Shown here: piece after piece, positions 51,484 to 64,000 of the stretch
Numbering within the stretch: the first letter of the stretch is position 1
How the letters are laid out: each line of letters begins with the position of its first letter
DNA from: a virus
Direction: 5' to 3' (one strand)
DNA: 64,000 nt
IMG/VR virus record: IMGVR_UViG_3300043411_002463
Span: 1-64,000 of that record
Notes under the pieces: model-generated
What the model saw: the letters and a program-made list of their open reading frames with translations, nothing else
Told to the model about the DNA's origin: nothing
The model's database searches: none
Translations under genes and position numbers: made by a program

Positions 51484-52054
51484 TTTAATTACTTCATATT
51501 ATAAAGATTCAAACCAAGACAGAAGAAAAGAAATAGATTATTGTTTTTATAAAAACTCAATATTATCTAATGTTAACTTTATTGTTTTAGAATCTCAAAC
51601 AAGAGTTAAGTTTTGTGAATATTTTGACTATCTGAATAAAATAACAAATCCAGATGATGTTAATATTGTTTGCAATTCTGATGTTTATTTTGAATCCGAA
51701 ATTTTACTATCTGAAAAAATTAAAGATGATCAAGCCTTTGCATTATCAAGATGGGATTTGCAAAATGATGGTACTTTGAAGTTTTTTGATCGACCAGATA
51801 GTCAAGATGCTTGGGTCTTTAGGGGTAAGATTAGAAATGTTTATTCTGATTTTTATATGGGCTATAGGGGTTGTGATAATCGTTTGGCTTATGAGCTAGC
51901 CCAAGGTGGCTATAGTGTATTTAATCCTTCAAAAACATTAAAATCAATTCATGTACACACTTCTAATGTTAGAAACTATACATATAATGATAAATTAGTT
52001 GTACCAGGACCATACAAATCAATTGATACAAGATATCTTGAAGAAGTACCATGA
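51476..52054 (+). CDS. small GT-A-type glycosyltransferase
   Basis: A 192-residue protein. VNIVCNSDVYFE is a D-x-D-like site and FALSRWDL, SQDAWVFRG, FYMGYRGCDNRLAYELAQGG and KSIHVHTSNVRNY are conserved stretches that I recognise from small transferase-like proteins in phage and marine bacterial glycan clusters. It is short for a full enzyme and may pair with a neighbour. Start and stop are both ATGA overlaps. Confidence 0.55.
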   Translation: MINLITSYYKDSNQDRRKEIDYCFYKNSILSNVNFIVLESQTRVKFCEYFDYLNKITNPDDVNIVCNSDVYFESEILLSEKIKDDQAFALSRWDLQNDGTLKFFDRPDSQDAWVFRGKIRNVYSDFYMGYRGCDNRLAYELAQGGYSVFNPSKTLKSIHVHTSNVRNYTYNDKLVVPGPYKSIDTRYLEEVP

Positions 52055-52962
52055 ATATTATATTTTATAATCATTTCCATAATGGAGATATTCATTTATC
52101 TAGAACTTTTATTGAGAAAATTTCTTATTATCTATTGAATAATAGGTTACACTCAAATTTTTTCTATTCTCATAGAAATTCTCAGAAATTATTAAGAGAT
52201 TTAACACCGCTTGTATCTTCTGATAATATTTTTTTTAAAATAGCTCATCAATATAAATTATTTGAAGATAAAGATAATGCGTATTTTATTAATACTTGGT
52301 ATGCTTCAAATTACAATAAGTATATGAATAATTATGGAATTACATTTGATACTTTATATGATTTATTTGATGATTTAACGAAAACATTGTGGAAATTTTC
52401 ATTGGCTGATGTTGATTCTAACCCTGTTAATTTTTTCCCTAAGATTAATTATGATAGATTTGAAATTAATAGTGCTAAGCAATTTTTAAGTAATATTAAA
52501 CAAAAAAAAGTTTTTATTCAAAACGGATTGGCATTATCAGGACAAAGTAATAACTTTAATTTCACCAATATAATTGCAAATTTATCTAAAAAATTCCCAG
52601 ATCTATATTTTGTAATCTCTGACAATGATAGTAATTTACCATTTTTATATAATGCCGAATTTAGTTCTAAAATAATTAATATAAAAGATAATGATTTAAA
52701 TGAAAATGCATATATTTCATCTATGTGTGATGTGATAATTGGTAGGGCTAGTGGAAGCTTTACATTTGCATTTAATCAAGATAATTTGTTTAATAGAGAA
52801 ACTCAATATATTTGTTTTAGTAATCTAATTCCTAAAAAACAATTTTGGTTAGGTGATAAATTCCATGATATAATTGATTATAAGGCTAAAATATTAAATA
52901 GCAATACGGCATCAGAAATAGAAGCTGAGCAAATTATTACTAAAGTTTTGGAGAAATTATGA
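52051..52962 (+). CDS. unknown sugar-cassette protein, probable GT-B glycosyltransferase
   Basis: A 303-residue protein beginning MNIIFYNHFHNGDIHLSRTF, a start seen in glycosyltransferase-like proteins that act in a GT-B fold. Later KKVFIQNGLALSGQSNNFNF and the paired YFVISDND and ISSMCDVIIGRASGSFTFAF suggest a C-lobe donor site similar to heptosyl- or fucosyltransferase-type enzymes. No catalytic residue is certain. It is chained by ATGA overlap on both sides, next to the N-acyltransferase. Confidence 0.45.
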   Translation: MNIIFYNHFHNGDIHLSRTFIEKISYYLLNNRLHSNFFYSHRNSQKLLRDLTPLVSSDNIFFKIAHQYKLFEDKDNAYFINTWYASNYNKYMNNYGITFDTLYDLFDDLTKTLWKFSLADVDSNPVNFFPKINYDRFEINSAKQFLSNIKQKKVFIQNGLALSGQSNNFNFTNIIANLSKKFPDLYFVISDNDSNLPFLYNAEFSSKIINIKDNDLNENAYISSMCDVIIGRASGSFTFAFNQDNLFNRETQYICFSNLIPKKQFWLGDKFHDIIDYKAKILNSNTASEIEAEQIITKVLEKL

Positions 52963-53579
52963 AGTTATGTATTTTTGGAGCTGGTGGATTTGCTAAAGAA
53001 GTTGCTTGGTTAGCTAATGAGTGTGGTTTTGATGTAGCTGCCTTTATAGATGTTAAAGAAAAAGAAGATGTATTAGGAATACCAGTCTATACCATTAATT
53101 ATTTTGATCCACAAATGCATTCAGCAGTGATAGCCGTTGGGTCACCAGATTTGAGAAAAAAAATAGTTAAAAATTTAAGTAATACTAATACTAAATTTAC
53201 TACATTAATTCATCCATCTGTTCATGTAGGATTATATTCTATTATTGGAAGAGGTTCAGTTATTTGTGCAAATAGTATTATTACCTGTAATGTTAATTTG
53301 GGTAATTTTTCTCAAATTAATTTAGCAACTACTATTGGACATGATGTAACTACTGGAGATTTTTTTACAACAGCACCACAAGTTGCAATCTCAGGTGGTT
53401 GTAATATAGGTTCGGAGGTATACTTTGGAACACATGCTTGTGCCTTAGAAAATTTAAATATATGTAGTAGAGTTATTGTAGGTGCATCTGCCACTATTAC
53501 TAAAGATTTAGTTTCTGCAGGTACTTACGTTGGTACTCCTGCTAAATTAATGTTGCCATCTCCTGCTTTAGAAACATGA
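52959..53579 (+). CDS. sugar N/O-acyltransferase, NeuD/PglD type
   Basis: A 206-residue acetyltransferase. The N-terminus is the nucleotide-sugar binding Rossmann piece (KLCIFGAGGFAKEVAWLANE, then VAAFID and AVIAVGSPDLRKKI). The C-terminal 110 residues are a left-handed hexapeptide helix (IIGRGSVICANSIITCNVNL, then IGHDVTTGDFFTTAP, ISGGCNIGSEVYFG) ending in GTPAKL, typical of PglD, NeuD and PerB enzymes. Such proteins transfer an acetyl group from acetyl-CoA to the amino sugar made by a DegT-type aminotransferase, like the one 1.4 kb downstream. His near residue 127 (TIGHDVT) is the likely base. Confidence 0.85.
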   Translation: MKLCIFGAGGFAKEVAWLANECGFDVAAFIDVKEKEDVLGIPVYTINYFDPQMHSAVIAVGSPDLRKKIVKNLSNTNTKFTTLIHPSVHVGLYSIIGRGSVICANSIITCNVNLGNFSQINLATTIGHDVTTGDFFTTAPQVAISGGCNIGSEVYFGTHACALENLNICSRVIVGASATITKDLVSAGTYVGTPAKLMLPSPALET

Positions 53580-54433
53580 ACTTTAGCTTTAATCAAGATA
53601 GAAGAGATAAAGTTTTAGGGTATGGTCAATATAAGATTGACAAGGAGACGGTTTGTTTTTTACCATTTAGGGGCGAGTTTGGGTGGTATCTAATGAACTT
53701 TGTGAAAAGAGTTCATGGATTTAATCATTCTAATAAGTGGGTCTTTTGTAAACCTGGACATGAAGTATTGTTTCCTAGTGCAACTAAATTCTTTTATGAT
53801 TGGTCAGATGTTCCAGATGATAAAAAGGCAGGCGTAGTAGTTACTAAAGATGAAGATTGGTTAAAATTTAAAATATTAACTGACTTTAATCTTTCTACAG
53901 ACCAAATTCATTTTTGTTCTCCTTTAGAAACTTCATGGGAAGAAAAACTTTCTCTTGCTGAGTTTGCTCCAGAGTTAAATAATAGATTTGATAATAATTT
54001 AAAGGTTGATATTGTCTTAACTCCAAGACATAGAAAAGTAGATCCATTAAGGAATTGGAAACCAGAAATTTGGCAAGCTCTTATTTATAGATTAAAAGAT
54101 TTAGGTTATTCAGTTGGAATATGTGGAGCTAAAGATTCTACCTTTCCACTTTTAGGAGCTGATTATTATTCATATGATTATGTTAATGTTGATTCTGATG
54201 TAGAATTAATGAAAAAATCTAAGTTGGTTATAACTTGTGAATCTGGTCTTTTATATTTATCATTTTTATGCAAATCTCCAACAATTTGTTTAGGTTTATG
54301 GCATGGAGATTTGGGCTCTATATTGCATAGACCTAAAAATGTATTTTTTAAAGAATGTCGTGAAGGTTGGGAAAATCCTGAAATTTTGGTTCAAGAAATT
54401 ATAGGGTACATGACACACTCCTATGATATATAA
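53576..54433 (+). CDS. probable glycosyltransferase, GT9/heptosyltransferase-like
   Basis: A 285-residue protein. VDIVLTPRHRKVDPLRNWKP, with WQALIYRLKDLGYSVGICGA and MKKSKLVITCESGLLYLSFL, follows the GT9 pattern (phosphate-holding loop, then W..L...L...G..V...G, then SG..H.A/L). The N-half contains LPFRGEFGWYLMNFVKRVHG, which resembles the GE.GW start of related surface-glycan proteins. Donor and acceptor are unknown. This closes the run of transferase genes before two small ORFs. Confidence 0.6.
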   Translation: MNFSFNQDRRDKVLGYGQYKIDKETVCFLPFRGEFGWYLMNFVKRVHGFNHSNKWVFCKPGHEVLFPSATKFFYDWSDVPDDKKAGVVVTKDEDWLKFKILTDFNLSTDQIHFCSPLETSWEEKLSLAEFAPELNNRFDNNLKVDIVLTPRHRKVDPLRNWKPEIWQALIYRLKDLGYSVGICGAKDSTFPLLGADYYSYDYVNVDSDVELMKKSKLVITCESGLLYLSFLCKSPTICLGLWHGDLGSILHRPKNVFFKECREGWENPEILVQEIIGYMTHSYDI

Positions 54434-54439
54434 TGAGGC

Positions 54440-54733
54440 ATGAGTACTTTAGCAGAATTAATAGATAAATTAATAACAACAGATACAAAACTATATGATG
54501 TCCAATCTAATCTTTATGAGATTAGAAAAATGACTTTTGAAGAATTCAAAGAAGCATATTCATCAGATGAACAGATGATGAAGCTTTATACAACCTTTAA
54601 AAAGGCGTGTGACTTGAATGTTACCCGAAATCAATATATGTTTGCAATTGATAAACAATTAGAATCAATTATCGATGAGCGTATTGCTGGTAAAAAAGAA
54701 GGTCATTCTTTCGACCCTCATAAAATTTATTAA
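54440..54733 (+). CDS. small helical protein, unknown
   Basis: A 97-residue, charged, mostly helical protein (TLAELIDKLITTDTKLYDVQ; a Tyr/Met-rich middle; RIAGKKEGHSFDPHKIY end). GAGG lies close to the ATG. No family is recognised. It overlaps the next start by one base (TAATG). Its place between sugar-transfer genes does not reveal a role. Confidence 0.55.
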   Translation: MSTLAELIDKLITTDTKLYDVQSNLYEIRKMTFEEFKEAYSSDEQMMKLYTTFKKACDLNVTRNQYMFAIDKQLESIIDERIAGKKEGHSFDPHKIY

Positions 54734-54963
54734 TGAACCACTTGTACAATAAGTTTAATTTCAATTCCTTTTTTAATGGAATTTCTGGTTTTTTATTTAT
54801 AGATGAAAAGCCAGTTCTGATTTATTGGGAAAAAGAATTGGAAATTTATGTCATTGAAGGCAAAAATATAATACATGTTAGCTCGATAGCTGATTATGAA
54901 ATGTCTAGGATTGAAGAGCAGGTTATAAGTGAATTTAGAAACAAATATTATAAGCTACAATGA
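54733..54963 (+). CDS. small beta-rich protein, unknown
   Basis: A 76-residue protein with aromatic, strand-forming sequence (GFLFIDEKPVLIYWEKELEI, IIHVSSIADYEMS). No motif is recognised. It begins on the last base of the previous stop and overlaps the aminotransferase start, so it is translated as part of the chain. Probably real because both junctions are tight, but unassigned. Confidence 0.5.
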   Translation: MNHLYNKFNFNSFFNGISGFLFIDEKPVLIYWEKELEIYVIEGKNIIHVSSIADYEMSRIEEQVISEFRNKYYKLQ

Positions 54964-56135
54964 TACCAGTATATAAACCATCTTTAAATAAAGAAGAAAT
55001 AAAAGAATATTTAAGTCAAGTTATTGACAGTACTTGGTTAACCTATGCTGGTGATTTTTTCAAGATTACATCTGAGAAATTAAAAAAAGTATTAGATGTT
55101 AAGCACGTATTATTATGTAATAATGGAAGTAGTGCCACTCATTTAGTAGCATTAGCTTTAAAGTTTAAGCATCCGGAAATTACAGACATTATTATTCCCA
55201 ATAATGTTTACATTGCAGCAATTAATGCATTTATTCAAGATGGAAATTATATTTGTCATTCTGTTGATGCTGATATTAATACCTGGAATTATTCTTTACA
55301 AGAGTTAGATTATCAATACAATAAAATTTCCAATAATGGACTTAAAAAAGTTGCTATTTTAATAGTTCATAATATTGGAAACATAATTAATGTTCCTAAG
55401 CTTCAAAGAAAATATCCCAATGCAGTCTTTGTTGTAGATAACTGTGAGGGATTTACTGGATCTCATGAAGGAATTAATAGTGCATCTATTGGATTGGCTA
55501 GTAGTATTTCTGGATTTGGAAATAAAACCATAACTAGTGGTGAGTTTGGAGTTTTTTGTACCAATGATACAGAAGTATATCATTATATAAAGTGTATTTG
55601 GGGGCAGGGGATGGCGTTATCTAGTTTGCCACTAGATGATAATGGACAAGAAATACAGAGTCTATCATTCTTATTAGGCAAGAGGTATCAACATCCAGTT
55701 TTGGGTTTTAATTATAGAGCAACTAATTTACAAGCTGCAGTAATAGCTTCGCAATTAAATAGCCTAGATGAGATTTTATCTAAGAAAAAAAGATTATTTG
55801 GTTTATATAGAAGATATTGTAGAAATTTAGAAAATATTTTGCCTCAAAAAATAGAAGAAGATACTGTTCATTCTCATTGGATGTTTGGTGTTAGAATTTT
55901 GGGGAAAAAATATAAAGAAATAGAAAAAATATTTTTAAATAATGGAGTAGAGTGTCGGCAAATGTTTTTCCCACTATCTAGTTCTTTTACTAAAGATAGA
56001 AAAGATGTATTGCTTTGGAAAGAAACCGTTGCTCAAACTTTAAATGAAGAATGTGTTATTCTCCCAAGTTTTCCTGATATAGCAGATGAAGAGATTTTTC
56101 AAGTAATAAAATGTTTAATTGAAGTAAATGGATAA
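54960..56135 (+). CDS. DegT/DnrJ/EryC1/StrS aminotransferase, GDP-perosamine synthase-like
   Basis: A 391-residue PLP enzyme that would convert a nucleotide 4-keto-6-deoxy sugar to its 4-amino form using glutamate. Signature residues: GSSATHLVALAL (cofactor phosphate), VVDNCEGFTGSHEG (D and substrate contact), SGFGNKTITSGEFG with Lys189 as the PLP lysine, and HPVLGFNYRATNLQAAVIAS. The GNKTITSGE and GFNYR(M/A)TN pairs are those of perosamine synthases (PerA/RfbE). GDP-mannose 4,6-dehydratase, which makes the needed substrate, is encoded at 58,013, and a matching N-acyltransferase at 52,959. Use of a dTDP-keto sugar from the RmlB homologue is the alternative. Confidence 0.85.
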   Translation: MIPVYKPSLNKEEIKEYLSQVIDSTWLTYAGDFFKITSEKLKKVLDVKHVLLCNNGSSATHLVALALKFKHPEITDIIIPNNVYIAAINAFIQDGNYICHSVDADINTWNYSLQELDYQYNKISNNGLKKVAILIVHNIGNIINVPKLQRKYPNAVFVVDNCEGFTGSHEGINSASIGLASSISGFGNKTITSGEFGVFCTNDTEVYHYIKCIWGQGMALSSLPLDDNGQEIQSLSFLLGKRYQHPVLGFNYRATNLQAAVIASQLNSLDEILSKKKRLFGLYRRYCRNLENILPQKIEEDTVHSHWMFGVRILGKKYKEIEKIFLNNGVECRQMFFPLSSSFTKDRKDVLLWKETVAQTLNEECVILPSFPDIADEEIFQVIKCLIEVNG

Positions 56136-57750
56136 AAATATGGATAAAAAATCAGAATTAAAAAAAGAATTAAGCCCAATTGATGCAATTAATATTTACA
56201 ATAAATTAGTTGAATTTTTAGCAAAATTAGATTTTGAACAAACAGTTATTCCTATTAAAATAAAAGAAGAACTTGAATTGTTTTCATCAAAAGACGAAAG
56301 CCAAAAAGATAAGTTATTCTCTTTATTTAAAGAGAAGCATTCTTTAGAATTAAGATTATTTATTTTAAATAAGTTTAAAAATACTTTATTGAAAGAGTTT
56401 GATTCCATTAAAATGACATCAGAAGAAATGTTGTCAAAATATGAAATATTTACTGAAAGAGAATTTGATATTAATAAACAATTTGCTTTGCAACTTGAAC
56501 ACTTAGTACCTACTCTCATGAAACAGAGTTATTTACTTGATGCTGGATTTACACCTGAAGAAATCACTTCAATTTTAACAAAAGAAGAAGAAGCAAAAAT
56601 AGAAATTGAAAAATTATTTGCTCAAAAAAAACACAGAACATTTGATGGCTTGTTCAAGAGAGTAGAAAAAGAATCAAATACAGAAAATGCAGGGACTGAA
56701 TCAGCAGATTCATTACAAAAAACAGGTAGTATTTATGCAAATAGTGTAAAAGAAGCTATCTATAAAATAAAAGAATTGTTTTCAAAAGTGAAAGAACCTC
56801 AACCCAGCGATCAAGAATCTAGTGAAGGTGAAGATTTAGGAGAAATAACAGAAGATGATTCTTTACAAGAATCAGATCTATCTACTGATATTTGTTCAAA
56901 CATAGAATCTATGTCCATTCCAGGAACATATTTTAGCGTAGATACTAAAGATATGTTAAAAGATCTTGATTTTTTAGAAGCAATGGGTAAAAATACCAAG
57001 ACTGATCTACCTGCTCAACAACAAAAGTCACTAAACCAAATGATGACTAATCAAGGTGGATTTAAAAAAATAAACAAAGAAATAGAAGATGATTTCTCTA
57101 GCGTTTTATTTGGGGAAAATGAAATTAAAAATATTAAAAATATGAATGCTAATGATTTATTTTATTTATACTTAAATGAATTAAAAAAAATCTTACATCA
57201 AGGTAATCTTGATAAAATCTATAAATCAAGAGAATTAATGGAAATATCATATAATTTAATATTGTGTTTCATTAAAAAACACAATGATTTAGAGGCAATT
57301 AAATCTATACCTGATAATGCTAATAAATTTTGGATTTTTATTAAAAGTGAGTTAGGATTATATCTTAATGTATTAAAGTTTCCATCAGTTGATAATATAA
57401 ATACAATGTATAATATTATTATTAATAATAAAGAATCAATTGTTGAAAAATTAGAAAAATGTATCAATTTTAATCATAATGTTACTGAAAAAACAACAGA
57501 AGTTCAACCAACTAATAAAGACATTAGTTCTTCATTACAAAATCTGTTTAATAATCAATCATCACCTTCACAAAACGAAGTTGTATCACAACCAGGCGAA
57601 GTTACCACAGCAGGTCAACCACCACTAAGCATTAAAGAAGCTAAAGAAATAATTGCTAAATATTCAGAGATAATAAATCAATCTAAGCCTAATCCAGAAA
57701 CAAATAAATCTTTGATAGATCTTATTGAAGTACTAAACAAATCACTCTAA
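56128..57750 (+). CDS. large acidic helical protein, unknown
   Basis: A 540-residue protein (or 536 from ATG 56,140). It is Lys/Glu/Ser/Asn-rich and almost entirely helical with predicted coiled coils (1-170 and 330-400). An acidic, disordered-looking middle (SDQESSEGEDLGEITEDDSL) and a Gln/Pro/Ser-rich linker near 470-500 separate helical ends. No enzyme motif is seen. It interrupts an otherwise sugar-dedicated run between aminotransferase and dehydratase, overlapping the former by eight bases. It could be a scaffold, a virion internal protein or an adaptor for the glycan machinery; I cannot decide. Confidence 0.45.
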   Translation: MDKNMDKKSELKKELSPIDAINIYNKLVEFLAKLDFEQTVIPIKIKEELELFSSKDESQKDKLFSLFKEKHSLELRLFILNKFKNTLLKEFDSIKMTSEEMLSKYEIFTEREFDINKQFALQLEHLVPTLMKQSYLLDAGFTPEEITSILTKEEEAKIEIEKLFAQKKHRTFDGLFKRVEKESNTENAGTESADSLQKTGSIYANSVKEAIYKIKELFSKVKEPQPSDQESSEGEDLGEITEDDSLQESDLSTDICSNIESMSIPGTYFSVDTKDMLKDLDFLEAMGKNTKTDLPAQQQKSLNQMMTNQGGFKKINKEIEDDFSSVLFGENEIKNIKNMNANDLFYLYLNELKKILHQGNLDKIYKSRELMEISYNLILCFIKKHNDLEAIKSIPDNANKFWIFIKSELGLYLNVLKFPSVDNINTMYNIIINNKESIVEKLEKCINFNHNVTEKTTEVQPTNKDISSSLQNLFNNQSSPSQNEVVSQPGEVTTAGQPPLSIKEAKEIIAKYSEIINQSKPNPETNKSLIDLIEVLNKSL

Positions 57751-57761
57751 ATAGTAGAATC

Positions 57762-58016
57762 ATGAGTAAAGAAGATGATCATAGAGGTTGTATACCAATA
57801 ATAGAAAGTTTGCCTGATGACCATTGGATACTTAATTTAGACAAAACACTTTCTGAAATTCAAAACAAATCCGATGAAGAAATGGCGATATATCTTCATT
57901 TGTCATTAGAAGAGTATTATGATTTGCTCAGTCGAGCCGTTGAAAATGTTGAAAGAGAAACGGAACGAATAAACAGATCAATTATTGATAATAAATTAAA
58001 GAAAGATAATAGATGA
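57762..58016 (+). CDS. small acidic protein, unknown
   Basis: An 84-residue protein rich in Asp, Glu, Ile and Leu (CIPIIESLPDDHWILNLDKT, then YLHLSLEEYYDLLSRAVENV). The C-terminal half is likely one long helix. No family is recognised. There is no clear ribosome site, but the stop overlaps the dehydratase start (ATGA), which supports it as a real gene. Confidence 0.5.
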   Translation: MSKEDDHRGCIPIIESLPDDHWILNLDKTLSEIQNKSDEEMAIYLHLSLEEYYDLLSRAVENVERETERINRSIIDNKLKKDNR

Positions 58017-58984
58017 AAAAAGTATTAATAACAGGAATTACGGGACAGACAGGTAGTTTTTTAGCTGATTTGTATTTAGAACGTGGCTGGGAAGTTTATG
58101 GAATGGTTAGAAGAGCTTCTAACTTTAATACACAAAGAATAGACCACATCTTTTCTAAAATTAAACTATCCTTTGGTGATTTGGCAGATCAATCATCTAT
58201 GGATGAGCTTGTTAAATCTGTACAACCTGATGTACTTATTCATTGTGGTGCCCAATCTCACGTCAGAGTATCTTTTGATATACCTGTATATACAGCAGAT
58301 GTAACTGGTGTAGCAACTGTTCGATTATTGGAATCAGTCAGAAAATATAGTCCGGAAACTCATTTTATTAATCTTGCTTCTTCAGAAATGTTTGGTTCTT
58401 CACCGCCGCCACAATCTGAAGCTACATTGTTTCAGCCATGTTCCATTTATGCATGTGCTAAAGTCATGGGATATTATTCAACTATTAATTATAGAGAATC
58501 TTATGGTTTGAAAGCATCTAATGCAATTGTTTTCAATAAAGAGTCAGAACGACGAGGTGAAACATTTGTTACTAGAAAAATAACAAGAGCTGCTACCAGA
58601 ATTAAGTTAGGATTACAAGACAAGTTATATCTTGGAAATTTACAAGCAAAAAGAACCTGGATGCATTGTTGGGATGCTTGCGAAGCTTTGGAGTTGATGG
58701 GTAATGCAGAAACTTCAGATGATTATTGTATTTCTGGCAAAGACATGCATTCGGTTGAAGAATTTGCTAATTTAGTTTTTGATAAGTTGGGATTATCTTT
58801 TAAAGATTATGTAGATTTTGATCCTAAACTATTAAGACCAAGAGAAGTAGATGCTCTTCAAGGAGATTATACAAAGATAAATAAAGCTTTGGGTTGGGAG
58901 CCAAAAATCTCATTTGAAGGATTGGTAGATAGAATGTTGAATTACGATCTTGAATTGGCACAACAAGAAAAGAAATTAAAATGA
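58013..58984 (+). CDS. gmd: GDP-mannose 4,6-dehydratase-like
   Basis: A 323-residue extended SDR enzyme that makes GDP-4-keto-6-deoxy-mannose, precursor of rhamnose, fucose, perosamine and colitose. NADP loop GITGQTGSFLAD (about 7-18); LASSEMFG active-site Ser/Glu; catalytic YACAK with Tyr146 and Lys150; FNKESERRGETFVTRKI, the GMD substrate loop, though usual members read NHESPRRGE; LGNLQAKRTW; and RPREVDALQGD near the end. The two substitutions (H to K, P to E) are unusual. The length is about 30-50 residues shorter than typical GMD. The dTDP-glucose dehydratase follows, joined by ATGA. Confidence 0.85.
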   Translation: MKKVLITGITGQTGSFLADLYLERGWEVYGMVRRASNFNTQRIDHIFSKIKLSFGDLADQSSMDELVKSVQPDVLIHCGAQSHVRVSFDIPVYTADVTGVATVRLLESVRKYSPETHFINLASSEMFGSSPPPQSEATLFQPCSIYACAKVMGYYSTINYRESYGLKASNAIVFNKESERRGETFVTRKITRAATRIKLGLQDKLYLGNLQAKRTWMHCWDACEALELMGNAETSDDYCISGKDMHSVEEFANLVFDKLGLSFKDYVDFDPKLLRPREVDALQGDYTKINKALGWEPKISFEGLVDRMLNYDLELAQQEKKLK

Positions 58985-59931
58985 AGAAGATATTAATTAC
59001 AGGTTCTTGTGGTTTTATAGGTTCTAATTTTGTTAGATATGCAACTTATAACAAACTACCATACCAAATATCAAGTGTAGATAAATTAGTATATCAACAC
59101 TCAAAAAATAATCTTTATATAAATAAAGATCATAATTTTTATATGGGTGATATTTCTGATTTTCATTTTATGAAAAATGTTTTTGAGTTAGAAAAACCAC
59201 ATATAGTTATTAATTTTGCAGCTGAAACACATGTGGATCAATCCATTGAAAATCCATTAAATATAATAGATGTAAACGTAAAAGGCACTCAAGTATTATT
59301 AGATTTAGCTGTTAAAAATAAAATAGAAAAATTTGTTCAAGTATCAACAGATGAAGTATATGGTCATTTAAATGATGGCGATAAACCTTGGACTGAAGAA
59401 GATAAAACTAACCCAAGAAATCCATATTCTGCTAGTAAGTTAGGAGCGGAACATTTAGTTAGAGCTTGCCATAATACTTTTGGGTTAAATTATATAATTA
59501 CAAGAAGTTGTAATAATTTTGGAATAAGACAATCTACTAGAAATTTGATACCTAAAATAATTAAAAATGTTTCGGCTAGCGAAGTTATGCCGATTTATGG
59601 CACAGGCATGAATGTTAGGGAATGGATATCAGCAGAAGATCATGTAGCGGCAATCTTAAAGATATTGGATAGTGATAAAACAAACGAAACATTTAATATA
59701 TCGACGGGGTGGGAAATCTCAAATTTGGAGATGTTTCATTTAGTTACTGGATTTCTTAATAAAGGTCATGATTTAATACGTTTCGTGCAAGATCGTCCCG
59801 GACATGATTTTCGTTACGCTATAGACAATGCTAAGCTCGTTGCATTGGGTTGGAAGCCAAGTGCATCATTTAAAAAACAATTAGAGCGTGCAGTTAATTG
59901 GTACGGAAATAATCAATGGTTCCTTAGATGA
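58981..59931 (+). CDS. rmlB: dTDP-glucose 4,6-dehydratase-like
   Basis: A 316-residue extended SDR enzyme producing dTDP-4-keto-6-deoxy-glucose. GSCGFIGSNFVRY (NAD loop), INFAAETHVDQSIENP, VSTDEVYGHL (catalytic TDE), NPYSASKLGAEHLVRA (Tyr/Lys pair), RSCNNFGIRQ, and DRPGHDFRYAIDNAKL are all in family order. RmlA, RmlC and RmlD are not seen here, so the keto sugar must go into another path (for instance the DegT aminotransferase) or use host enzymes. Its start overlaps the preceding stop, and so does the next gene's. Confidence 0.88.
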   Translation: MKKILITGSCGFIGSNFVRYATYNKLPYQISSVDKLVYQHSKNNLYINKDHNFYMGDISDFHFMKNVFELEKPHIVINFAAETHVDQSIENPLNIIDVNVKGTQVLLDLAVKNKIEKFVQVSTDEVYGHLNDGDKPWTEEDKTNPRNPYSASKLGAEHLVRACHNTFGLNYIITRSCNNFGIRQSTRNLIPKIIKNVSASEVMPIYGTGMNVREWISAEDHVAAILKILDSDKTNETFNISTGWEISNLEMFHLVTGFLNKGHDLIRFVQDRPGHDFRYAIDNAKLVALGWKPSASFKKQLERAVNWYGNNQWFLR

Positions 59932-60527
59932 TAAAATATAAATTTGAACAAGAAGACTTAGATAAATGTAAGAAATTTTCTGAAGAGGTAGATACTTCTT
60001 TTTATGCTACTAGAAACCAATTTAACTCTGAAAAACGAGTAAAAGATTCGTATATTGGTAAGCTTGGTGAAATTGCTGTATATCAAATATTAAAAAATCA
60101 AATAAAAGATATAACAGAGCCTGATTTTAAGATATATAAAGCAAAAGAAAAATCATGGGATTTTGATTTGAAGGGTGAAGGAATGAATCTTCATATCAAA
60201 ACTCAAGATCTTAAAGTTGGCGAAAAATATGGAGTTTCTTGGATTTTTCAATTTGGCGATGGTAAATCTAGGTCATATGATAAAGAAATATTTGATAGAA
60301 TATCACCAAGCCAATATGTTGCATTTGTTTCTTTAGATTTGGTTGAATCAGAAGCAACAGTAAGAGCAATGGTAAGTTTAGATTTCTTACATGAAAAGAA
60401 AATTTGGGCAGCGCCAAAACTAGATAAATTAAAAATAGCAAATAAAGTAGCTGTTTACTTAAAAGATCTGGAAAAATATCCAGAAGAGTTAGACGCACTT
60501 AAAATACAACAAAATGAGCAGGAGTAA
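59928..60527 (+). CDS. PD-(D/E)XK-like nuclease candidate
   Basis: A 199-residue protein. GKLGEIAVYQIL gives a helical Glu (about 48), SWDFDLKGE a metal-binding Asp (78 or 80), and NLHIKTQDL a strand with Lys91 at the place of the E-x-K, here H-I-K. This order fits small restriction-like endonucleases or Holliday-type resolvases. It starts inside the RmlB stop and lies five bases before the FtsZ-like gene, at the border between sugar and replication/organisation genes. The missing second acid of the motif lowers certainty. Confidence 0.5.
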   Translation: MIKYKFEQEDLDKCKKFSEEVDTSFYATRNQFNSEKRVKDSYIGKLGEIAVYQILKNQIKDITEPDFKIYKAKEKSWDFDLKGEGMNLHIKTQDLKVGEKYGVSWIFQFGDGKSRSYDKEIFDRISPSQYVAFVSLDLVESEATVRAMVSLDFLHEKKIWAAPKLDKLKIANKVAVYLKDLEKYPEELDALKIQQNEQE

Positions 60528-60532
60528 AATCA

Positions 60533-61819
60533 ATGACTGAAATCGTTAATGATTTAGACAATTTACCACCAGATGAGCTGGAATTACTGAAACAGAAACT
60601 AGGAAAAAAGATGCCTGTAACAATCGTAGAAACCCGCAAAAGAAGCATGAATTTTGGAATCGTTGGCACTGGTCAAGCAGGCTCAAGAGTCGCTGAAAAG
60701 TTCCATGAATTAGGTTATGAGACGGTTGTATTTAACACAGCTCAACAAGACCTTGCTCATATCAAACTACCAGAAGAAAGAAAATTATTACTTCAATATG
60801 GTTTGGGTGGAGCTGCTAAAGAATTAGACATCGGTAGAGAAGCTGCAGAATCACACAGAAATGAAATAAATGATTTGATTACCAAACATCTAGAAGACTC
60901 TCATGTTAATATCTTATGTTTATCATTGGGTGGTGGTTCTGGCGCCGGCTCTGTAGATACTATGATAGAGGTCTTACAGGCGCAAGGCAAGCCCATTGTA
61001 GTTATTGCCGTCCTACCAATGGATTCAGATGACGGTCAAACTAAGTCGAACTCATTAGAAACGCTAGCAAAGATTGCAAAACATATCCAAGATAGAAGAG
61101 TACAATCTATTATTGTAGTGGATAATGCAAAAATCGAATCAATTTATTCAGAAGTTAGTCAATTAAAGTTTTTTGAATTAGCAAACGAAGTTATCGTTGA
61201 ACCAATCGATAAATTCAATACCTTGAGCGCAGAAGATTCACCTGTTAAGGCTTTAGATAGCACTGAGTGGGCAAAGCTATTGATTGATGGCGAAGGCTTA
61301 ACTATTTTCGGCAGTCTTGTAGTTACTAACTATGAAGATGAAACTTCTATTGCCGAAGCTGTATTAAACAATCTTTCTAACAATTTATTGGCTGAAGGTT
61401 TTGATTTAACCCAAGCTAAATATGCTGGTTGGATTGTAGCAGCTAATGAAAAAGTTTTAGAAAAAATACCACAACGTGCTTTAACTTTTGCTAATTCGTT
61501 AGTTCAAGAAAAAGTTCCAGGAACAAAAACAGTTTTCCGTGGAGTTTATGTAACAAACGATGTAGATGATGATGTTAAGGTATATTCTTGCTTTAGCGGG
61601 CTTGGATTACCAACAAGCAGATTAGATGCTCTTAAGAAAGAAGTAGCATCTTCTTTTGCACAAGCCAAGTCAAAAGATGAAACTAGAAACTTATCTTTAC
61701 ATTTGGATACTGGCAAAAATTCTACAGTATCAGAAGCACAAAAAGTTAAAGATAAAATCGTTGCAAAAAACTCTTCTTTTGGTAAGTTTATGGGAAGGGT
61801 TACCGATAAAAGAAAATGA
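60533..61819 (+). CDS. FtsZ/tubulin-like GTPase
   Basis: A 428-residue cytomotive GTPase candidate. After a 38-residue extension, the FtsZ fold runs in order: T1-like GIVGTGQAGSRVAEKF (43-58), T3 GLGGAAKELDIGREAAE (90-106), the tubulin signature T4 GGGSGAGS (133-140), T5 AVLPMDSDDGQ, T6 VVDNAKI, and an acidic T7-like LDSTEWAKLL, where Asp and Glu would correspond to FtsZ Asp209 and Asp212. A basic end (KFMGRVTDKRK) could bind DNA or an adaptor. T3 and T4 are closer to FtsZ than to the PhuZ of nucleus-forming phages. A role in positioning the phage genome or replication zone is inferred. AGGAG precedes the ATG. Confidence 0.88.
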   Translation: MTEIVNDLDNLPPDELELLKQKLGKKMPVTIVETRKRSMNFGIVGTGQAGSRVAEKFHELGYETVVFNTAQQDLAHIKLPEERKLLLQYGLGGAAKELDIGREAAESHRNEINDLITKHLEDSHVNILCLSLGGGSGAGSVDTMIEVLQAQGKPIVVIAVLPMDSDDGQTKSNSLETLAKIAKHIQDRRVQSIIVVDNAKIESIYSEVSQLKFFELANEVIVEPIDKFNTLSAEDSPVKALDSTEWAKLLIDGEGLTIFGSLVVTNYEDETSIAEAVLNNLSNNLLAEGFDLTQAKYAGWIVAANEKVLEKIPQRALTFANSLVQEKVPGTKTVFRGVYVTNDVDDDVKVYSCFSGLGLPTSRLDALKKEVASSFAQAKSKDETRNLSLHLDTGKNSTVSEAQKVKDKIVAKNSSFGKFMGRVTDKRK

Positions 61820-63270
61820 ATAAAATTACAATCTTAGATCATAAGGTTGCAAAAGTTGAGTTAGATGATCCTATAATGTTCGATCGTCTAACTCATTTTC
61901 TGTCTTTTAGATTTACTGGAGTTGAATATAGTTCAGCTTTCAAATCTGGTAATTGGGATGGAATAACCTACATGATAAATGCAAAAAAACAATTTCCTAT
62001 AGGTTTATTATCTAAAGTCAAGGATTGGCTTGCTCAAAACAACATCCAATATCATTTAATAGATGATTCTAAAGAAATTGAATTATACAAACCATTGGAT
62101 ATTTCTAAAGGTTTGGCTGCAGTTGGTTGGACTCCTAGAGACTATCAATTAAAAGTAGTAGAATTATGTAATCAAAACAATTTGGGAATTATTAGAGCTG
62201 CTACAGGTTCTGGTAAAACTTTAATTGGAGCGTTAATGACAGCTAACTTTAACAAGCCAACAATGGTTTATGTTATTGGTTTAGATTTGTTAAATCAATT
62301 TCATGAAACATTTTCTGCTTTGTTTGAAGAGAAAATAGGATACATAGGTAATGGTGTTTGTGACATTCAGAGAATAAACATTGCTTCTATTTGGACTATT
62401 GGTCGTGCCCTGGACATTAAGCTAAGTGATTTGGTTGTGGATGATGAAATTGACGAAGAGGCTTTTAAAGAGTCTGACAAATATAAGGTTATTACTGCAT
62501 TAAAAGAAGCAAAGCTTCATATCTTAGATGAATGTCATATTGCAACTACTTCTACTCTAAGAAGTATACACAAGGCTATTAATCCAGAACATATGTTTGG
62601 TCTTAGTGGAACACCTTTTAGAGAGGATAATACAGATCTTCTTATAGAGGGTTTGCTTGGTCCTAAAATGATAGATATTGCAGCGTCAGAACTTATAAAA
62701 AAGAAAGTTTTAGTGCAGCCTTATATTAAATTCATTGAATCACCACATATGAAATGCACTGGAAAGTATCCAACAATATATAAAGATTTTATAGTAGAAC
62801 ATAAAGCTAGAAATGAATTAATTGCACAAGAAACTAAAAAACTTATTGATAAAAACTATAAGCCACTTGTCTTATTTAAAACAATAAGGCATGGTGATTT
62901 AATTGCTAAAGAATTACAAGCTTTAAATATTAGATTCGCCTTGTTATCAGGAAAGGATTCTTTAGATAAAAGAATAGAAGTTAAGAATAAACTAAATAAT
63001 AATGAAATAGATTGTATTTTAGCTTCTACTATATTAGATATTGGTTTTGATTTGCCTAAAATGTCAGGACTAATTTTGAGTGGTTCAGGAAAATCTTACG
63101 TTCGGGCTTTACAAAGAATCGGAAGAGTATTACGGACTTACCCAGACAAGAAAGCCGCAGCTATTGTTGATTTCTATGACAATGTTAAATTCTTGAAAAA
63201 ACATTCAAAAGCAAGATTTGATATTTATTCATCTGAACCTGGCTTCATTATATTAAACAATCCTTTTTAA
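61816..63270 (+). CDS. SF2 DNA helicase, UvsW-like
   Basis: A 484-residue helicase. Residues 1-105 look like the UvsW N-terminal domain. Walker A is ATGSGKT (129-135), the DEAH-like box is DECH (238-241), then GLSGTPFRED (motif III), LVLFKTIRHGDLIAKEL (motif IV) and ALQRIGRVLRTYPDKKAA (motif VI with its arginines). T4 UvsW unwinds R-loops and branched DNA to shift replication from origin- to recombination-dependent mode. The start overlaps the FtsZ-like stop (ATGA), so the two proteins are made together. Confidence 0.85.
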   Translation: MNKITILDHKVAKVELDDPIMFDRLTHFLSFRFTGVEYSSAFKSGNWDGITYMINAKKQFPIGLLSKVKDWLAQNNIQYHLIDDSKEIELYKPLDISKGLAAVGWTPRDYQLKVVELCNQNNLGIIRAATGSGKTLIGALMTANFNKPTMVYVIGLDLLNQFHETFSALFEEKIGYIGNGVCDIQRINIASIWTIGRALDIKLSDLVVDDEIDEEAFKESDKYKVITALKEAKLHILDECHIATTSTLRSIHKAINPEHMFGLSGTPFREDNTDLLIEGLLGPKMIDIAASELIKKKVLVQPYIKFIESPHMKCTGKYPTIYKDFIVEHKARNELIAQETKKLIDKNYKPLVLFKTIRHGDLIAKELQALNIRFALLSGKDSLDKRIEVKNKLNNNEIDCILASTILDIGFDLPKMSGLILSGSGKSYVRALQRIGRVLRTYPDKKAAAIVDFYDNVKFLKKHSKARFDIYSSEPGFIILNNPF

Positions 63271-63279
63271 AGAGGCAAC

Positions 63280-63855
63280 ATGGAAAGAAAAGCACCGAAT
63301 AAAAGATGGGAAACTTTCTTTACAAAACTGGAATTACATTCTTCCAAAGAAGTAGAATCATGGAATGATTATCAATTATTAGGGTATTTTTGTGATGTGT
63401 TTTATCAATATACAGGGCATTTATTTCCATTTACATTCACTACTGCTCCAGGTAAATGTAAAGAGTTATTTTTTATTAAAAGTCTAAAGGCAATGTTAAA
63501 TACAGAGTCTCCATTTCCAGTCAAGGAATATATAGATTGGATTTTTAAAGAGAAAATAATTCCACAAAAAACGCAAATAAGATCATTTGCATTGTTAAAT
63601 CATAACTCTAATATTAATGAGTTTTTGTCAAAGAAAAAAGCAAGCAAAGCTGTCACAAAAAACACCAACATACCAAATGAATATATTTCAGTAATTGAAT
63701 CATATAATTTATCAGCTTCTACTTATGGCGACTTGGCATTTATACTTAGAGCTATTGAGCAAGATCCAGAAGATCCAACTAGACAAGAATATGCTAAGAT
63801 GTTTAAAGTATTAGAAGTGATGGGTTTAAGTAAAGAAAAAATTAAAGAATTGTAA
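63280..63855 (+). CDS. unknown protein
   Basis: A 191-residue helical protein with a good ribosome site (AGAGG). Conserved-looking pieces are WNDYQLLGYFCDVFYQYTGH and KELFFIKSLKAML, then a Lys/Ser-rich linker (about 115-130) and a helical end with ILRAIEQDPEDPTRQEYAKM. No family is recognised. It follows the UvsW-like helicase, so a replication or repair partner is plausible, nothing more. Confidence 0.5.
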   Translation: MERKAPNKRWETFFTKLELHSSKEVESWNDYQLLGYFCDVFYQYTGHLFPFTFTTAPGKCKELFFIKSLKAMLNTESPFPVKEYIDWIFKEKIIPQKTQIRSFALLNHNSNINEFLSKKKASKAVTKNTNIPNEYISVIESYNLSASTYGDLAFILRAIEQDPEDPTRQEYAKMFKVLEVMGLSKEKIKEL

Positions 63856-63856
63856 T

Positions 63857-64000
63857 ATGGAAAAGGTCAAATTCTTTTTAGTTAATGGGTTTAATGTTGA
63901 AGGATATGTAGAACATTATTCTGATGAAGAAGTTGTTATTTCTAATGGAAAAAATAGTGGAAATATTGTAATTCTAAATCCTGCCAAAAATATTGTTTTT
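63857..64000 (+). CDS. partial protein, beta-rich, cut by window edge
   Basis: An open frame from ATG 63,857 that runs off the window; 48 residues are visible (MEKVKFFLVNGFNVEGYVEH, then DEEVVISNGKNSGNIVIL). The alternating pattern is compatible with a small five-strand barrel of the Sm/Hfq type, but the visible part is too short to claim it. It follows the preceding gene by one base. Confidence 0.5.
   Translation, partial: MEKVKFFLVNGFNVEGYVEHYSDEEVVISNGKNSGNIVILNPAKNIVF

What the first reader, a model, noticed from the sequence alone, without database searches (positions are those of the whole stretch)
60533..61819. Phage FtsZ-like GTPase closer to FtsZ than to known phage PhuZ
T1, T3, T4 and a T7-like acidic loop are all present, in order, in a phage gene. 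Known phage tubulins (PhuZ, TubZ types) usually lack the FtsZ-style T3 loop GLGxxxxxxxGRxAAE, which is clear here. A 38-residue N-terminal extension and a basic C-terminus are extra. Coupled translation with a UvsW-like helicase suggests a link between filament and replication zone. It could centre phage DNA, build a compartment, or interfere with host division.
Basis: partly seen in the sequence, partly recalled or inferred. Interest (0 to 1): 0.85.

Follow-up and report, generated by a model that had tools for sequence, protein, structure and literature searches.

The report
TubZ-type tubulin of uncultured large phages
This phage gene encodes a real tubulin-like, probably filament-forming GTPase, closer to the plasmid-moving protein TubZ than to the cell-division protein FtsZ; it belongs to a large, uncharacterised family carried beside DNA-replication genes in big phages that show no sign of the known 'phage nucleus'.

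Summary
The ORF at 60533-61819 is a tubulin-superfamily GTPase. Pfam Tubulin matches at 7e-16, the AlphaFold model has pLDDT 83 and pTM 0.78, and the 15 best PDB folds are all TubZ.

The interpretation needs correcting. The protein is closer to FtsZ than to PhuZ, but closest to TubZ: profile-profile E is 3e-46 for TubZ, 7e-27 for FtsZ and 1e-11 for PhuZ. It has the TubZ-like C-terminal domain above cutoff, a TubZ/PhuZ-type C-terminal helix, and TubZ-like T3, T6 and T7 loops.

At least 113 viral contigs encode relatives; they form one clade (95/93) with two halves. In 50,697 phage records the only relative is phage G gp138, at 26%. In all 41 group-A loci with enough flank, a UvsW-type helicase lies downstream, usually followed by helicase-loader and DnaB-like genes. 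Group A has a conserved N-terminal helix and a conserved basic C-terminal peptide (SxFGK...DRRK).

No chimallin, phiKZ-type RNA polymerase, integrase, ParA, TubR or centromere repeats were detected, though all records are fragments.

Best explanation: a GTP-driven filament that positions shell-less replicating phage DNA through its tail (about 0.5; inferred). Rivals are capsid transport, prophage partition and host-division interference. A new variant of a known kind.

The parts
60533..61819 (+). TubZ-type phage tubulin GTPase, 428 aa
60533..60652 (+). N-terminal extension (residues 1-40) with a conserved helix motif LxxLKxK (residues 16-22)
   Evidence: conserved in group A (L16 in 35 of 38, L19 in 37 of 38 rows); helix 13-24 in model
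60665..60685 (+). T1 loop GTGQAGS (residues 45-51)
60800..60850 (+). T3 loop GLGGAAKELDIGREAAE (residues 90-106), comparable to TubZ T3 and FtsZ T3
60929..60952 (+). T4 tubulin signature GGGSGAGS (residues 133-140)
61121..61126 (+). T6 Asp-Asn (D197 N198), shared with most of the TubZ references; FtsZ mostly has Pro-Asn
   Evidence: invariant in 57 sequences; comparison
61244..61270 (+). T7 catalytic loop VKALDSTEW (residues 238-246); D242 invariant, E245 acidic; FtsZ Asn of NxDxxD absent
61613..61696 (+). C-terminal helix (residues 361-388), in the place of H11 of TubZ/PhuZ; FtsZ lacks it
   Evidence: model; H11 as a shared TubZ/PhuZ feature: PMC3678025
61766..61816 (+). Conserved basic C-terminal peptide KNSSFGKFMGRVTDKRK (residues 412-428), consensus KxSxFGK...DRRK
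   Evidence: S414, F416, D425 in 37 of 38 and R427 in 38 of 38 group-A rows; absent from the sister group B
61816..63270 (+). UvsW-type DNA helicase (UvsW_N, ResIII, Helicase_C), overlapping the tubulin stop by 4 bases
   Evidence: downstream in 41 of 41 group-A loci
63280..63855 (+). 191-aa protein of unknown function, conserved after the helicase in most group-A loci
59928..60527 (+). 199-aa protein of unknown function directly upstream, shared only with the closest relatives (L006, L007, L008)

Best explanation
The gene encodes a TubZ-type cytomotive GTPase of a lineage of large tailed phages in which no nucleus-shell gene was found. Shown by computation: the tubulin fold, an intact set of nucleotide-binding loops and a T7 catalytic loop, strong purifying selection among close relatives, fixed residence in the replication gene block, and a conserved N-terminal helix and basic C-terminal peptide. 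Inferred: subunits stack head to tail, the T7 loop of one completing the GTPase site of the next; the filaments treadmill or grow and shrink; and the conserved C-terminal peptide docks, directly or through an unidentified phage adaptor, on replicating phage DNA or the UvsW/DnaB replication machinery, so that filament dynamics position or separate the phage replication zone during lytic growth. This would be a TubZ-like DNA-moving job without TubR and a PhuZ-like centring job without a protein shell.
For: TubZ-like C-terminal domain above cutoff; TubZ best in PDB sequence and fold searches and in profile-profile comparison; TubZ-like T6/T7 loops and C-terminal helix. UvsW-type helicase downstream in 41 of 41 group-A loci, with DnaC-like loader and DnaB-like helicase further on. 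In one sister subgroup (B2) the tubulin lies between a UvsX-like recombinase and a DnaB-like helicase. Conserved basic C-terminal peptide; the TubZ tail tip is known to bind TubR-DNA and TubY (PMC5322520). PhuZ filaments centre phage DNA (PMC4244570, abstract). Very low dN/dS among relatives.
Against: Shared operon does not prove shared function. No adaptor has been identified. In another sister subgroup (B1) the gene sits next to terminase and head genes, which fits capsid or packaging work equally well. Group-B relatives lack the tail peptide. Polymerisation is untested.
Confidence: 0.5

Rival explanations
1. Capsid or packaging transport: the filament carries proheads to the replicated DNA, as PhuZ does in nucleus-forming phages.
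For: In subgroup B1 the gene lies beside the large terminase and close to a weak scaffold-like match; PhuZ filaments carry capsids (PMC13282480).
Against: Group A, to which the window belongs, keeps it in the replication block, not the head block; no chimallin shell was found for capsids to dock on.
Confidence: 0.2
2. Type III (TubZRC-like) partition of a phage genome carried as a plasmid or in pseudolysogeny.
For: Closest cellular relatives are plasmid TubZ proteins; phage-borne TubZ partition is known (PMC7950403).
Against: No TubR-like protein in the group-A loci and no centromere-like iterons next to the gene; no integrase or ParA in 12 records searched. These records are fragments and TubR is very divergent, so this is suggestive only.
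Confidence: 0.12
3. Interference with host division: the protein co-polymerises with or poisons host FtsZ.
For: Sequence similarity to FtsZ (TIGR00065 9.9e-21).
Against: Closest to TubZ rather than FtsZ; catalytic loop and C-terminal helix intact and conserved, unlike a simple poison; fixed location among replication genes.
Confidence: 0.08
4. A GTPase scaffold or membrane-linked organiser (for example a ring or vesicle-like compartment) rather than a mover of DNA, with the N-terminal helix as anchor.
For: Conserved N-terminal helix and tail.
Against: Membrane anchoring was not tested; TubZ-type proteins known so far are movers (established knowledge).
Confidence: 0.1

Closest known systems
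TubZ of Bacillus plasmids (e.g. PDB 4ei7, 2xka)
   Same: Best sequence, profile and fold match; TubZ-like C-terminal domain; similar T5 loop, DN T6 motif and FDxSE-like T7 loop; long C-terminal helix
   Different: About 20% identity; no TubR gene and no centromere repeats found; in a phage replication block; own N-terminal helix and C-terminal peptide
Bacillus phage G gp138 (putative FtsZ-like)
   Same: Only relative among 50,697 phage records, 26% identity
   Different: Groups with plasmid TubZ proteins (99/98) and is preceded by gp137, which matches the gene in the TubR position of a B. velezensis plasmid; no shared neighbours with the window
PhuZ of nucleus-forming phages (phiKZ, 201phi2-1)
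   Same: Phage tubulin in large genomes; C-terminal helix
   Different: Separate clade (100/100); PhuZ profile aligns only over the GTPase half; different T3/T6; no chimallin or phiKZ-type RNA polymerase in the group-A records tested
FtsZ (archaeal FtsZ nearest)
   Same: Tubulin GTPase signature, T1/T3/T4, two-domain fold
   Different: Scores 74 bits against the FtsZ cutoff of 295; no FtsZ_C hit; T7 Asn missing; extra C-terminal helix
A0A6J5RW92, 'FtsZ Cell division GTPase', uncultured Caudovirales phage (UniProt/BFVD)
   Same: Same family, 54% identity
   Different: Named FtsZ in UniProt; no study of it was found

Membership tests
Tubulin/FtsZ superfamily | Tubulin GTPase domain with GGGTGSG-type T4 signature | tested here: met
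   PF00091 59.5 bits against cutoff 33; GGGSGAGS conserved
Tubulin/FtsZ superfamily | Two-domain tubulin fold | tested here: met
   Model pLDDT 83.4, pTM 0.78; Foldseek E 1e-25, TM 0.80 to target
FtsZ | FtsZ equivalog score and FtsZ_C domain | tested here: not met
   TIGR00065 74.4 bits against 295.2; no FtsZ_C among Pfam hits up to E 10
FtsZ | T7 loop NxDxxD | tested here: not met
   ALDSTE: Asn replaced by Ala, second Asp by Glu
TubZ | TubZ-like C-terminal domain | tested here: met
   PF22453 30.4 bits against cutoff 26
TubZ | C-terminal helix H11 and charged tail | tested here: met
   Helix 361-388 in model; tail 9 basic and 3 acidic of 28; H11 in TubZ/PhuZ:
TubZ | Phylogenetic position inside TubZ | tested here: inconclusive
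   Family is its own clade (95/93); grouping with TubZ in best tree only 71/79 and alternatives not rejected
TubZRC partition system | TubR gene beside tubZ | tested here: not met
   No TubR-like ORF found by phmmer in the group-A loci; TubR is divergent, so sensitivity is limited
TubZRC partition system | tubC centromere iterons | tested here: not met
   No repeat arrays of that kind in 52000-64000 or 70000-86750, and no tandem arrays of that kind in the window or in 63000-82000
TubZ / PhuZ / FtsZ | GTP-dependent polymerisation | not testable with these tools
   Needs purified protein
PhuZ | Sequence membership in the PhuZ clade | tested here: not met
   PhuZ is a separate clade 100/100; hhalign covers only 194 columns, the GTPase half
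PhuZ | Chimallin shell and phiKZ-type RNA polymerase in the same genome | tested here: not met
   No match in nine large group-A records for chimallin; none in seven large group-A records plus the window's own record for the RNA polymerase; records may be incomplete
CetZ | CetZ as nearest family | tested here: not met
   CetZ ranks below TubZ and archaeal FtsZ by sequence and fold

The most novel reading that the evidence does not exclude
A third mode of phage tubulin: large phages without a nucleus shell use a TubZ-type filament whose own conserved tail (no TubR) grips the phage replication machinery, building or positioning a naked replication zone.
Probability: 0.3. Interest if true: 0.82.

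Novelty: new variant of a known kind. Interest (0 to 1): 0.6.

Why it matters
Phage tubulins are known from two settings: PhuZ, with the shell-bound phage nucleus, and TubZ, with plasmid-like partition. Here is a third, widespread group (113 or more contigs, some up to 395 kb) tied to the replication genes of phages in which no shell gene was found. If it forms filaments, cytoskeletal organisation of infection is not restricted to nucleus-forming phages, and one can ask what a tubulin does when there is no nucleus to move. The conserved tail peptide gives a direct handle for finding its cargo.

Tried and rejected
Filing as FtsZ: rejected (below cutoff, no FtsZ_C, T7 differs). Filing as PhuZ: rejected. 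Filing as a full TubZRC system: rejected for lack of TubR and tubC, while keeping TubZ as the nearest protein. The tree could not settle the deepest order. The scan of 84,980 cellular genomes found only one relative, on a 14.5-kb contig of a metagenome bin, probably a phage contig. The strict 4-base coupling with UvsW is not conserved. The C-st phage and the pXO1 plasmid, which carry known TubZ proteins, were not fetched because they belong to toxin-bearing germs; other Bacillales plasmids were used. A possible earlier survey (Sun et al. 2025, BMC Genomics, on chimallin and phuZ phages) is not held, so prior mention of this family there cannot be excluded.

Full report
What is there. The window is part of an IMG/VR virus record of 86,750 bases with linear ends, probably a fragment. 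The ORF at 60533-61819 encodes 428 residues. Pfam gives the tubulin GTPase domain at 7.1e-16 and, in the second half, the TubZ-like C-terminal domain at 4.4e-7, both above their curated cutoffs. The FtsZ model matches at 9.9e-21 but with 74 bits against a cutoff of 295. An AlphaFold model built on 57 family members has pLDDT 83.4 and pTM 0.78; the core is confident, while the first 30 and last 13 residues are not.

What it is closest to. In the PDB the 15 best fold matches are all TubZ (best E 1.1e-25), then archaeal FtsZ, then CetZ. The family profile finds a Bacillus TubZ at 1.7e-37 over its whole length, archaeal FtsZ at 1.7e-26 and CetZ2 at 3.6e-24. Profile-profile comparison gives 3e-46 for plasmid TubZ, 7e-27 for FtsZ and 1e-11 for PhuZ, the last over the GTPase half only. 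The loops agree: T6 carries Asp-Asn, as in most of the TubZ references, where FtsZ mostly has Pro-Asn; T7 reads LDSTE, like TubZ FDxSE, without the FtsZ Asn; and T3 is comparable to TubZ T3 as well as FtsZ T3. The model ends in a long helix (361-388) in the place of H11, a feature shared by TubZ and PhuZ (PMC3678025). A tree of 56 proteins makes the family one clade (95/93), PhuZ one clade (100/100) and FtsZ one clade (99/96); the order among them is not resolved, and V+FtsZ and V+PhuZ are not rejected. So 'TubZ-type' rests on profiles, fold and motifs, not on the tree.

The family. A scan of IMG/VR found 113 stretches encoding relatives, of which the best 80 were kept. They fall into group A (about 32-65% identity to the window; eleven contigs above 200 kb, the largest 395 kb) and group B (about 27-33%). 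Among 50,697 phage records only Bacillus phage G gp138 matches, at 26%, and it groups with plasmid TubZ proteins. One family member is in UniProt, named 'FtsZ Cell division GTPase' of an uncultured phage. No paper describing the family was found in the held library; the jumbo-phage papers read mention PhuZ- and TubZ-type phage tubulins only.

Neighbourhood. In all 41 group-A loci with enough flank a UvsW-type helicase lies downstream on the same strand (gap 6 bases to 7.2 kb; under 60 bases in 7), usually followed by a 191-aa protein, a 152-aa protein, a DnaC-like loader, a DnaB-like helicase, a sigma factor and ribonucleotide reductase. In the window the tubulin and helicase genes overlap by 4 bases. 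In group B one subgroup (B2) has the gene between a UvsX-like recombinase and a DnaB-like helicase, the other (B1) beside the large terminase and a weak scaffold-like match. The neighbours differ between groups, but the gene keeps company with DNA handling in each.

Conserved ends. Group A conserves an N-terminal helix (LxxLKxK) and a C-terminal peptide KxSxFGK...DRRK; R427 is invariant and S414, F416 and D425 are each present in 37 of 38 distinct sequences, after a less conserved linker. Group B lacks the peptide, and its model keeps only a short final helix, yet it too is nearest to TubZ in fold. A conserved terminal peptide behind a linker is what FtsZ and TubZ use to bind partners (established knowledge for FtsZ); the TubZ tail tip binds TubR-DNA and TubY (PMC5322520). 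The closest relatives show dN about 0.06 against dS of 1.5 or more, so the protein is under strong purifying selection.

What is missing. No chimallin (nine large group-A records) and no phiKZ-type RNA polymerase (the window's record and seven large group-A records); no integrase or ParA (12 records); no TubR-like gene in the group-A loci and no centromere-like repeats near the gene. All records are fragments, and chimallin and TubR diverge fast, so these absences are moderate evidence. The positive controls worked: chimallin was found in phiKZ and 201phi2-1, and phage G gp137 matched the B. velezensis protein in the TubR position.

Mechanism. Shown: fold, intact GTPase loops, selection, conserved ends, gene block. 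Inferred: head-to-tail filaments with GTP hydrolysis by the T7 loop of the next subunit; tail-mediated docking on replication proteins or DNA; positioning of a shell-less replication zone. I give this 0.5, capsid transport 0.2, partition 0.12, division interference 0.08, a static organiser 0.1.

Novelty. The protein kind is known (TubZ-type cytomotive tubulin). The lineage, its genomic setting, the absence of a detectable TubR and shell gene, and the tail peptide make it a new variant. Interest 0.6: a specialist would want this family tested, but nothing in the sequence alone shows a new function.

Noticed in passing
L003:11686-13113 (Bacillus phage G, NC_023719.1 78389-79816): Phage G gp137 matches the gene in the TubR position of B. 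velezensis plasmid plaBV1 (phmmer about 1e-10), and gp138 groups with plasmid TubZ: phage G probably carries a TubR-TubZ pair annotated only as 'gp137' and 'putative FtsZ-like'.
   Followed up: partly
L042:8804-11278, L043:5382-7787, L044:8828-11233, L047:8807-11302: In four group-A loci the tubulin ORF is continuous in frame with an upstream glycosyltransferase domain (PF00534, found in the three scanned: L042, L044, L047), giving 801-831 aa: a possible glycosyltransferase-tubulin fusion.
   Followed up: partly
L053:4878-11026 and related loci (most of L050-L060, L063-L067, L069-L073, L078, L079, L083): Sister subgroup B1 has the tubulin directly after a 660-aa protein of unknown function and the large terminase; its neighbours are not those of group A.
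   Followed up: partly
window 63857 onward (L004:858-1316): 152-aa gene after the helicase block with a weak LSm/Hfq-like match (PF17209, 0.0064), conserved in many group-A loci.
   Followed up: no
window 54960-59931: Aminotransferase and two nucleotide-sugar epimerase genes lie directly upstream of the replication block; epimerase-type genes are upstream in nearly all group-A loci.
   Followed up: partly
L002:17166-20873: The ribonucleotide reductase large-subunit ORF (1235 aa) appears to hold a long insert resembling an intein (judged by eye, not searched).
   Followed up: no
L093:7788-9005: The only relative among 84,980 cellular genomes lies on a 14.5-kb contig of a metagenome bin that also has its own FtsZ on another contig; probably a phage contig in the bin.
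   Followed up: partly
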